From: Sinohyriopsis cumingii
Lineage: Eukaryota > Mollusca > Bivalvia > Unionida > Unionidae
NCBI GenBank assembly: GCA_028554795.2
Contig: CM068832.1
Span: 86,142,511-86,206,510 of the forward strand
Reading direction: 5' to 3'
DNA length: 64,000 nucleotides
In this document: piece by piece, positions 6,465 to 28,232 of the stretch
How positions within the stretch are numbered: position 1 is the first letter of the stretch
Layout: each line of letters starts with the position of its first letter
Notes under the pieces: generated by a model
Database searches by the model: none
Seen by the model: only the letters and a program-made list of their open reading frames with translations
What the model was told of the DNA's origin: nothing
Translations under genes and position numbers: made by a program

Positions 6465-9400
6465 CTGCGACCAAAAAAATAAAGAAAGAAAAAGAAATCG
6501 TCATATTGACTGGACAATTGTTTGGCAAAAGGTATGTACGATATACGAATGTAAAATTGAAAAACATCATATAAAAGTACATTTTTCAAATGTTCAAAAG
6601 TGGACATTAAATCATTTATATTTATTTAGTAACAGTGCATTAGGATCTAAGGCCCTTGCCGGTCACCTGAATTAGATATGCGTTGTAATAAAACGCACAT
6701 ACTTTTGTATGCAATTTATGTTTTGTTTGTGAGAACTGGTGAGACTATTATATGGCCGTTCCAATAACATATAAAATTTTAACAAAATTCTTTCAAACAA
6801 TAAACCATTTTAATAAGAAATTATTTTTACCCAGGTCTTCTGATTTCTCCAAAATGACAAAGAAAATTGCCCTTACTTTTCTTCATTGTTAACTGACCAT
6901 CAATACGGCCATCTGGGTTATATTATTTTAGCAACTACATAAGCATGTTTAGCCCCTAAAGAAAACTATCATCAATTTTATTTAGTTTGCGCCTAACTTA
7001 CTTGCTTGAATCTTTACAAAATAGACCGGTCAATCTCGACTTCCTGCCTTCAAGCGGTTTCAGAGTGTACCAAAAGCTGAAAATGTTCCTGAAAATGTTT
7101 ATTAACGATATGCATATGTATCTATTTGTGGAAGTGAATAATGTAAAGACAAAGTGACATTTGGTTTGAAGTAGACAGGTTACAATCTTACTTTCATGAA
7201 TTTTCTTTTTTATATCTTTTTTATATCTTATATTAACTTTTTTGAATTCTAACCTCACAGATGTTTCCAGTAGTGTTATTTATATGAAACACTAACGAAT
7301 CCTAAAATGTAATTAATAGTTGGTGTGATTCCTTTGGAAACCAATATTTACTGATACAACATAGAAGCGTTAGTGAACTTTCATATTTACTATGCTGTTA
7401 AGGAAAATCACTTAATCGTGTATACATGTTAAATTTCCAGCCAATACTTACCTATTGTCTTTTACCAACTTCAAGTATTGATCTTTCAACCATAACTGTA
7501 AATCCATTTCAAACTATAAAGATACAAAAAGTGTATATATATATATATATATATATATATATATATATATATATATATATATATATATGTGTGTGTGTGT
7601 GTGTGTGTGTGTGTGTGTACAGTAGTGGATTCAATGCTACTGTTAGACATGAATTCCAATGGATGATTTTTTTCTTGACAGAAATAGTTACTATTGTGAT
7701 CCATTCCACTTCAAGAATACTTGTGGATTGGTATGATTCATTAATCTGCATGAGTACTTGCTGGAAATTTTATCGCTAATTTTAAGGTCAAACTCTCTGG
7801 CAGACACCCAGATTCGAATCATTGTTTTCTTTTCCATGTACACATAGTATAATTTTCAGTATATGAGTGTATCCAATTACATCGATCACTACATCGTGTT
7901 GTGCCATTCTATCAGCATGTCATTTTTAAAAAGCGGAATGGAGATTCAATGGAGCTATATCTGTATATCGTGGTTTCAGTGAGATTGTCCCTTGCGGAAA
8001 ACACTTACCTCCTCGTCTTCTAGTATATCGTGTCCGAATCCGTATTTCCTCCTCAGTTTGTTCAGTTCACCTAACCAGTCGCGACAAAAAGCATGATGGC
8101 GTACGTGTCTTGTGTTTTGGCTGAAATTAGTTTTTCATGTACAAAACTAAGAAAACAAATGCAGGTTTTGAATAATACACGTCAAATATAAGTGAACCCT
8201 CTACATTCAAATATTTTGTTTAATATTATTTCAGCCGTTTGTTGATATTATTGATTTTGGCTTTAAAACCAGATCTAATAGTACATCTTTCTTAAAGTAA
8301 ATGAGAAATTATTACATATGAAATTTCTTAAACGGTTTGAATAATTATATATGTCACAGTAGGTGACATATTGTATTATGCAAAGAACTGCATTAACTTT
8401 ATATGAAAATCAGCACGAGTCTAAGTTTCTATTTTTCACGTAACTTTCGGCATTTTACTCAATAAATGCCTCTTTGCGATGTTGCTAAGTTTTACGCCAT
8501 ACTGTGTTGTATGATTTCTTTAGGATACGACTTTGAGAACCTTCTATAGATTTGCCTTATGTAATGTATTATAATAAAAGACAAATATAACAGGATTTAT
8601 ACGAAACGGAGAAAAGACGACAAAGTCCACCTAGTAATGATTGAGCAGCAATGTGAAGGAGAATATTGACTTATGTGTAAACTTATATAAGACTTATGAC
8701 AGAAGCACTTACCAGCAGTCGTCATCACAGCTTATTGTCTGGTACAAGTACTCAGAAAGAGCTTCTTCCTGGAAAGTATACATTATACGCAAAGAAGATA
8801 TTCAATAGTTGCATTTCAAAGAGTCTCTAATTTTGAATTAACTGTCACTTTAGTATTTTCAAATCACGCTCTTATTACGAGTTGGTTTTGAAATGCAGGC
8901 TTGCATCAATAACTGCTAAACAATCATGTTTAGAACTTCCTTTTTTTTAAGAAGAATTAAATAATGACCATTGTACCATTCTAAGAACTAAATTATTGTA
9001 ATCGCCAATTCCATTCATTCATTACAATATAAGCTGTCAATTGTTTCTACAAACCTTTTCCTTCAAAAACGTCTGTGATATCTTTTCTAGTGTCTGAAAA
9101 GTAAGCATATAACAATTGTCAATTAGCGCTGAACATGAAATCGTCGTAAGTTAGAGACTATTCATTTCTTATTTCATAGAATTAACCTTCCAAACACTCA
9201 AGCGATTCACAAGCATCCATTCAGGAGAAAGTGAAATATGTGAAATAATATTTGCTTGGCTAAACTACGTGCATGAAGCCTGATCGGTACCAGTTAATAC
9301 AGAAAGTCAGTGCCATCAGGTTAACATATGATTATGTGAAAAGGTGAAAATGTCATACATTAGATAACAGTGATAAAGCATTTTAAAAGTTATACAAGTA

Positions 9401-28232: not shown

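What the first reader, a model, noticed from the sequence alone, without database searches (positions are those of the whole stretch)
8009..28232. A transposase-derived gene fused to a Josephin protease and a PHD finger
Seventeen phase-compatible exons on the minus strand give one 1462-codon frame that combines C2H2 fingers, a SWIM finger, an HMGXB3/KDZ-like transposase core, a Josephin-type domain and a PHD finger. I know KDZ-like cores with other peptidase partners, but I cannot recall this combination. It suggests a domesticated chromatin regulator that reads histone marks and removes ubiquitin, or a large intron-bearing transposon protein.
Basis: partly seen in the sequence, partly recalled or inferred. 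Interest (0 to 1): 0.85.

Follow-up and report, generated by a model that had tools for sequence, protein, structure and literature searches.

The report
Giant transposon with deubiquitinase-fused transposase
The gene is the only one found in a 51,000-base jumping DNA element, and its predicted protein joins a transposase-like core to a ubiquitin-removing domain and a histone-reading finger; this suggests that the element protects itself and picks landing sites through the host's ubiquitin and chromatin systems.

Summary
CxC4 (KDZ-transposase cysteine cluster), Josephin and PHD pass Pfam cut-offs. The core aligns only distantly with a KDZ transposase.

It is not a domesticated host gene. It is the only gene found in a 51,314-bp transposon running from 10.5 kb left of the window to 40801, flanked by an exact 8-bp target duplication. 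A second copy (C18) matches at 99.6% over 25 kb, has its own exact duplication and lacks exons 1-9. Ends pair at 25 loci; 14 of 22 tested have exact 8-bp duplications. In 20 of the 25 no core exon was found, so these probably move in trans.

Each end carries an ~11-kb array of one ~20-bp motif, in opposite orientation: 35 left, 48 right, none in 28.7 kb between or 27.7 kb outside. These are probably transposase-binding sites. Insertions sit in CpG-undepleted patches.

Giant KDZ elements, and DUB domains in other transposons, are known. My searches (open-licence listings only) showed no Josephin-PHD-transposase fusion. Expression and enzyme activity are untested.

The parts
1..40801 (.). Part of the 51,314-bp transposon that lies in the window; the element starts at window coordinate -10512 (C9:86131998). 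Right terminus ...GACACTGTTG at 40801, followed by the 8-bp target duplication AATGTAAC (40802-40809)
   Evidence: Breakpoints against the C18 copy and matching 8-bp duplication
6326..28232 (-). 19-exon gene, 1,528 aa: 28232-28031, 26468-26267, 24282-24205, 23950-22926, 21753-21614, 18076-17875, 17404-17300, 16632-16451, 15061-14920, 13662-12080, 11354-11286, 10880-10798, 10077-9981, 9535-9467, 9093-9055, 8768-8713, 8120-8009, 7513-7452, 6464-6326
   Evidence: Splice and phase listing, spliced frame, collinear copies
26267..28232 (-). Exons 1-2: two C2H2-like fingers (by eye)
   Evidence: Sequence; no Pfam hit; exon 2 has 8 other loci, 5 of them with the SWIM exon downstream within 5 kb
22926..23950 (-). 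Exon 4: SWIM-like CxC-x6-CxH motif (by eye) and start of the CxC4 cluster
   Evidence: Sequence; CxC4 Pfam hit spans exons 4-5; 48 matches of the exon in the genome, window included
21614..21753 (-). Exon 5: end of CxC4 cluster (aa about 464-550)
   Evidence: PF18717 40.4 bits
17875..18076 (-). Exon 6: C..CG..P....DG motif that resembles one in a KDZ transposase of the same genome
   Evidence: hhalign probability 3.5, E 0.012, 27 columns: suggestive only
12080..13662 (-). Exon 10: KDZ-like core (aa 760-960) and Josephin domain (about aa 1095-1287; active-site Cys and His present, Asp at the third position by eye)
   Evidence: Josephin Pfam; core vs KDZ ORF 0 of 500 shuffles; Josephin vs own ataxin-3-like exons 0 of 500
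9981..10880 (-). Exons 12-13: PHD finger
   Evidence: PF00628 27.2 bits, cut-off 24
29984..39059 (.). Right-arm tandem array, unit about 821 bp, four binding-motif copies per full unit
   Evidence: Unit alignment and motif positions
29188..40801 (.). Right arm: 48 sites of the ~20-bp motif RCATCYGYGCTCAGAACCA, all in one orientation (reverse)
   Evidence: PWM scan
1..487 (.). Inner edge of the left arm; the rest lies left of the window. 35 sites in the whole 11-kb arm, all forward
   Evidence: PWM scan; inverted matches to the right array
18864..21225 (+). Unrelated nested element in intron 5, absent from the C14:116.3 copy
   Evidence: Self-match 97.5% to 54995-57402; C14 copy continuous across 18866/21221

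Best explanation
Shown: the gene is the only one found in a giant, recently mobile DNA transposon of 51,314 bp that makes 8-bp target duplications. Its two ends are long arrays of one ~20-bp motif in opposite orientation. At 20 of 25 loci with both ends the core exon was not found; one such copy, read in full, is the two arms and nothing else and has its own duplication. Inferred: the 1,528-aa protein is the transposase. Its zinc domains (C2H2, SWIM-like, CxC4) bind the motif arrays, many sites per end helping two ends 51 kb apart to be captured together. The KDZ-like core cuts and joins DNA. The PHD finger (and perhaps CxC4) brings the complex to CpG-undepleted, probably promoter-like open chromatin. 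The Josephin domain removes ubiquitin from the transposase itself or from nearby chromatin proteins, so that the slow assembly on a giant element is not ended by the proteasome. Likelihood: transposon 0.97, this protein as its transposase 0.85, PHD-guided targeting about 0.4, Josephin as self-protection about 0.4 (against histone or host-defence substrates).
For: Element ends and target duplications: (exact 8 of 8 at C9, C18 and 12 of 20 further pairs, so 14 of 22; one more 7 of 8). Recent movement: C9 and C18 99.65% over 25,153 columns; 21 of 40 right-end and 20 of 42 left-end matches are at 94% or more, window and partial matches included. Deletion derivatives: the C18 copy lacks exons 1-9; the 9,964-bp C1:91.2 copy is two arms only with 23 + 8 sites and an exact duplication; 20 of 25 end pairs contain no exon-10 match. 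Oriented arrays: 35 forward/0 reverse left, 0/48 right, 0/0 in 28.7 kb middle and 27.7 kb outside. Domains. Core vs KDZ ORF: 98 against 51.6 +/- 9.3, 0 of 500; controls reached by 343 and 181 of 500. Josephin alignment and constraint. CpG at 15 insertion sites: 35 in 767 bp against mean 12.1, 0 of 5,000 samplings; CpG o/e about 1.1 within 300 bp of the junction in eight longer flanks, 0.62 at 0.7-1.5 kb, background 0.49.
Against: No Pfam KDZ hit to the window protein. The wider region (aa 550-1095) against the KDZ ORF was reached by 2 of 500 shuffles, and the printed local alignment of the core does not pair all the residues I would call catalytic. The AlphaFold model was useless (pLDDT 32.6). 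Seven of 22 tested pairs gave at most 6 of 8 (one of them, C6, asked at the wrong coordinate). The exon-7 donor of the window copy is GC, so this copy may splice poorly. The Pfam match covers Josephin profile positions 61-156, not the catalytic Cys part; that segment alone is weak (54 of 500 shuffles reach it). Josephin residues are lost in some copies: Cys in 1 of 7, His in 1 of 7, Asp in 3 of 7. No expression data. The CpG background is only 72 kb from a few loci, and surviving insertions may be a selected subset.
Confidence: 0.8

Rival explanations
1. A domesticated host gene: a transposase-derived chromatin regulator that reads histone marks and removes ubiquitin, kept by the host.
For: Window-lineage constraint on core and Josephin (ratio about 0.43 and 0.32); many introns; Josephin Cys and His present.
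Against: Bounded element with exact 8-bp duplication around it, near-identical C18 copy with its own duplication, 25 paired-end loci, decayed relatives. Constraint of this size is also expected for a transposase while the family is active.
Confidence: 0.05
2. A real giant transposon in which the exons form two or more genes (for example a transposase ending after exon 10 and a separate PHD gene).
For: No transcript data; large introns; no transposase motif seen in exons 11-19; exons 11-19 were not searched on their own in the genome.
Against: All 18 junctions are in phase with one terminal stop; splice sites shared with the C14 copy; Josephin lies in the same exon as the core; exon 2, SWIM and core exons co-occur in order in several other copies.
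Confidence: 0.12
3. A relic: the window copy is already dead (GC donor, nested insertion) and the family was moved by another source copy not found here.
For: Exon-7 donor GC against GT in C14; nested 2.4-kb insertion in intron 5; C18 lost exons 1-9.
Against: No coding stop in 1,528 codons; GC donors can work (recalled); C9 and C18 99.65% alike; of 14 core loci only the window and C18 have exon 10 free of stops and frame breaks.
Confidence: 0.3

Closest known systems
KDZ (Kyakuja-Dileera-Zisupton) DNA transposons, incl. giant KDZ elements of Ectocarpus (to 30.3 kb) and Chlamydomonas (31.7 kb, active)
   Same: CxC cluster, large transposase, 8-bp duplications as in Zisupton and Dileera (PMC12730594 passages), giant size, nested insertions, trans mobilisation (PMC12477816 passages)
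   Different: 51.3 kb, larger than the sizes named in those passages; no PF18758 hit; fused Josephin and PHD; oriented motif arrays of about 11 kb at each end; no accessory gene found
Zisupton of platyfish with F-box isoform
   Same: KDZ element with a ubiquitin-pathway domain and a CxC cluster (PMC12062965 passages)
   Different: F-box belongs to ubiquitin ligases (recalled); here a Josephin deubiquitinase
Helitrons/Helentrons with VTD or OTU deubiquitinase domains; MuDR-6_HM with OTU
   Same: Transposon protein carrying a cysteine deubiquitinase-type domain (PMC9741609 passages; PMC6446971 table passage)
   Different: Rolling-circle or MULE elements and other DUB classes; in the passages seen Josephins are named only as a cellular class
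Rehavkus and MULE transposons
   Same: PHD finger or SWIM finger in the transposase; Rehavkus has a minisatellite near one end (PMC6446971 passages)
   Different: Rehavkus makes 9-bp duplications; no Josephin and no paired inverted arrays of a binding motif in the passages seen
Ataxin-3 / Josephin deubiquitinases
   Same: Pfam Josephin above cut-off; catalytic Cys and His align with the genome's own ataxin-3-like exons
   Different: By eye, Asp stands where ataxin-3 has Asn; no ataxin-3 tail; part of a transposase-like protein

Membership tests
KDZ transposons | KDZ transposase core (PF18758) | tested here: not met
   Not listed at E up to 10. A PF18758-positive ORF of the same genome (L102, 38.7 bits) aligns with aa 760-960 at 0 of 500 shuffles, so a distant relation is likely but membership is not claimed
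KDZ transposons | CxC cysteine cluster | tested here: met
   CxC4 PF18717 40.4 bits, cut-off 26.9
KDZ transposons | 8-bp target duplication (Zisupton, Dileera) | tested here: met
   14 of 22 pairs exact
KDZ transposons | Terminal inverted repeats | tested here: inconclusive
   Short imperfect terminal match only, by eye CACATCC-CGA-A-GAACC
KDZ transposons | Catalytic acidic triad | tested here: inconclusive
   Candidate Asp kept in 4 of 7 and Glu in 6 of 7 other copies; positions chosen by eye, no structure
Josephin deubiquitinases | Josephin domain over curated cut-off | tested here: met
   32.8 bits, cut-off 26, profile 61-156 of 157
Josephin deubiquitinases | Catalytic Cys, His and Asn/Asp (and oxyanion Gln) | tested here: inconclusive
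   Cys and His align with own ataxin-3-like exons; Asp lies beyond that alignment and is placed by eye; Gln lies 6 or 8 residues before Cys against 5 in the ataxin-3-like exon, so its role is uncertain; residue roles recalled
Josephin deubiquitinases | Ubiquitin cleavage | not testable with these tools
   Needs an assay
Domesticated transposase gene | Single locus without transposon ends | tested here: not met
   Ends, duplications, second copy
hAT transposons | hAT dimerisation/BED domains | tested here: not met
   No such Pfam hit listed, although hAT duplications are also 8 bp (recalled)

The most novel reading that the evidence does not exclude
A giant transposon whose transposase carries its own deubiquitinase and histone reader: dozens of oriented binding sites per end load many transposase molecules, Josephin keeps this assembly from ubiquitin-driven removal, and PHD steers it to promoter-like CpG patches. 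Ubiquitin control would then be a transposition step that the element itself overrides.
Probability: 0.3. Interest if true: 0.8.

Novelty: new variant of a known kind. Interest (0 to 1): 0.62.

Why it matters
It would add Josephin to the deubiquitinase classes taken up by transposons, and it gives a testable layout for how a transposase can bring together ends 51 kb apart. The arms-only derivative is a natural minimal substrate, and the CpG pattern at insertion sites makes the chromatin-targeting role of a transposase PHD finger testable.

Tried and rejected
Domesticated gene: rejected on element ends and copies. A 41-nt extra exon at 17650-17610 was considered and dropped because it breaks the phase of the next exon. 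AlphaFold of exon 10 alone gave pLDDT 32.6 (job, result), so no fold search was made. PDB sequence search found only ataxin-3-like protein at E 0.79. The Pfam scan of six exon-10 members (some partial) gave Josephin in 3 of 6 and no KDZ. One hhalign against a KDZ ORF gave only a 27-column motif (probability 3.5). The whole 550-1095 region against that ORF was weaker than the core alone: 2 of 500 shuffles reached it. A paper that holds HMGXB3 concerned only its place beside another gene. A second gene in the element: stop-to-stop ORFs of 90 aa or more were listed for the window and ORFs of 90 aa or more for L047; outside the gene and the nested element the longest was 147 aa. L053 was not listed, the arms were not scanned with profiles, and an intron-rich second gene could be missed. 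Iyer 2014 and Bohne 2012 were not held, so what they say on KDZ domains is known to me only from citing papers and recall. In paper search one term was cut short and asked as a whole word, so it could not match. In my notes I first wrote 13 of 20 exact duplications; one search shows 12 of 20.

Full report
WHAT WAS CHECKED. The window is C9:86142511-86206510 of a 2.9-Gb genome. One chain of 19 exons joins in phase into 1,528 codons and a stop. Exon 7 had no fitting GT donor, and I used a GC donor (17300) that keeps the phase. The homologous copy C14:116.3 has GT at that place, which supports the junction.

DOMAINS. [quoted passage not shown] A SWIM-like CxC-x6-CxH and C2H2 fingers are visible but have no Pfam hit. 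PF18758 (KDZ) does not hit. The same genome holds other, PF18758-positive KDZ sequences (45 matches). One of them (L102) aligns with aa 760-960 better than each of 500 shuffles (98 against mean 51.6, maximum 89), while the Josephin and SWIM parts of the same protein do not (343 and 181 of 500). With one sequence on each side this is a lead, not a classification. The Josephin part aligns with the genome's own ataxin-3-like exons better than each of 500 shuffles (99 against 49.6, maximum 85; controls 183 and 88 of 500) and shares the Cys and EHWLT; the Cys segment alone is weak (54 of 500). By eye, Asp stands where ataxin-3 has Asn.

IT IS A TRANSPOSON. Exon 10 has 32 matches in the genome at 14 loci by my grouping, window included; C18 matches over 526 of 526 residues at a reported 100% (99.6% by tblastn). 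Comparing C9 and C18 gave both ends: 25,153 columns at 99.65% on the left and 4,212 at 97.0% on the right, then unrelated flanks. The junctions give termini GAGTAGGG...CACTGTTG and duplications AATGTAAC (C9) and ACCACGAG (C18), each 8 of 8 (register fixed). Element length is 51,314 bp. End queries gave 40 right-end and 42 left-end matches, with 40 candidates scored of 113 and 102, so these are lower bounds. They pair at 25 loci, spanning 9.9 to 64.9 kb (my pairing of the two tables; some ends are partial). I fetched 20 more junction pairs: 12 of 20 have an exact 8-bp duplication, one has 7 of 8, seven have 6 or fewer. In one of the seven (C6) I asked for the wrong high-end coordinate.

COPIES. 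Of the 25 pairs, 5 (C9 window, C18, C14:116.3, C31:10.1, C9:22.9) contain an exon-10 match and 20 do not. C18 lacks window 14632-29984, hence exons 1-9. The C1:91.2 copy is 9,964 bp of left arm plus right arm only and carries an exact duplication; the other 19 were not read in full. The other exon-10 copies have stops or frame breaks. So the window copy is the only one found with all exons open, and the shorter ones were probably moved in trans. Exon 2, the SWIM exon and the core exon lie in order on one strand in several other copies: 5 of 8 non-window exon-2 loci have the SWIM exon within 5 kb, and 5 of 13 non-window core loci have it upstream.

ARMS. Both ends hold tandem units of about 820 bp, inverted relative to each other. 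Within them one motif, about RCATCYGYGCTCAGAACCA, recurs at roughly 190-220 bp. A weight matrix made from 46 right-arm sites found 35 forward and 0 reverse in the left 11.0 kb, 0 and 48 in the right 11.6 kb, none in the 28.7-kb middle and none in 27.7 kb outside. The left arm is an independent test only in part, because the arrays are related by descent. The core GAACC of the motif occurs three times within about 80 bp of each terminus at nearly the same places (33, 54, 77 and 33, 53, 79). With a matrix from both arms, C18 has 35 and 25 sites and none in 19.9 kb of flanks; C1:91.2 has 23 and 8. I infer transposase-binding sites.

TARGETS AND SELECTION. Fifteen insertion sites (13 of the 20 pairs with 7 or 8 of 8, plus C9 and C18) have 35 CpG in 767 bp against a mean of 12.1 in samples from 72 kb of other sequence; none of 5,000 samples reached 35, and G+C (0.449) was reached by 1 of 5,000. 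In eight longer flanks from six loci (two of these, C14:125.9 and C3:120.9, without a clean duplication, one not paired) CpG o/e falls from 1.1 (0-100 bp) and 1.09 (100-300) to 0.75 and 0.62, background 0.49. Pairwise dN/dS against C14:116.3 is 0.34 (core) and 0.35 (Josephin); against the other six copies 0.41-0.67. Counting changes private to each copy, the window gives 0.43 and 0.32 and the other copies 0.33 to above 1, from small counts; C14:116.3, itself broken, is also low. In the seven other copies the Josephin Cys is kept in 6, His in 6, Asp in 4. This is what an element maintained by transposition should show. It does not by itself separate Josephin function from hitch-hiking, but Josephin is no less constrained than the core in the window lineage.

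MECHANISM. Shown: mobility, ends, duplications, arrays, domain content. Inferred: binding of the arrays by the zinc domains, cutting by the KDZ-like core, chromatin reading by PHD, deubiquitination by Josephin. Papers seen as passages only: deubiquitinases of the VTD class, and OTU domains, occur in Helitrons and may protect proteins needed for transposition (PMC9741609); a platyfish Zisupton isoform includes an F-box (PMC12062965); KDZ elements reach 30.3 kb in Ectocarpus and 31.7 kb in Chlamydomonas (PMC12477816); Zisupton and a Dileera family make 8-bp and Kyakuja 7-bp duplications (PMC12730594); PHD and SWIM fingers and an OTU occur in MULE-type elements or their outgroup (PMC6446971). A term search of the giant-transposon review found no KDZ, Zisupton or Josephin (PMC6431247).

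NOVELTY. My literature searches cover an open-licence library, and for the longer lists I saw only the top (20 of 66 papers, 20 of 33, 12 of 489, 15 of 47). They showed no Josephin domain in a transposase. The arrays were asked about only (12 of 21 listed). The key KDZ paper (Iyer 2014) was not held, so a prior mention there cannot be excluded. I therefore call it a new variant of a known kind.

Noticed in passing
window 41101-45756 (+): LINE-type retrotransposon just outside the element's right end: first ORF with a sub-threshold zinc-knuckle match, then endonuclease and reverse transcriptase pieces in separate ORFs.
   Followed up: partly
window 52077-53162 (-): Mutator-like transposase ORF, PF20700 131 bits.
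   Followed up: partly
window 18864-21225 and 54995-57402: Two inverted copies (97.5%) of an unnamed element; the 565-aa ORF of the second has no Pfam hit up to E 1; the first copy sits in intron 5 of the transposase gene.
   Followed up: partly
window 1536-1806, 14396-14578, 16680-16926, 24485-24799, 62612-62828: Dispersed repeats that look like tRNA-derived SINEs (repeat matches; SINE label by eye).
   Followed up: no
G000:C8:55.93-56.30 Mb: Five SWIM-exon relatives (about 40% identity, stops inside the matches) at about 93-kb spacing, as in a repeated segment.
   Followed up: no
G000:C14:9982032-9989253: Two right ends facing outwards 7.2 kb apart, a possible element with two right arms.
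   Followed up: no
G000:C10:92.46-92.53 Mb: Decayed copies in which the SWIM and core matches are only about 1-1.5 kb apart; in two of them (L030, L031) no match to the exons between was found.
   Followed up: partly
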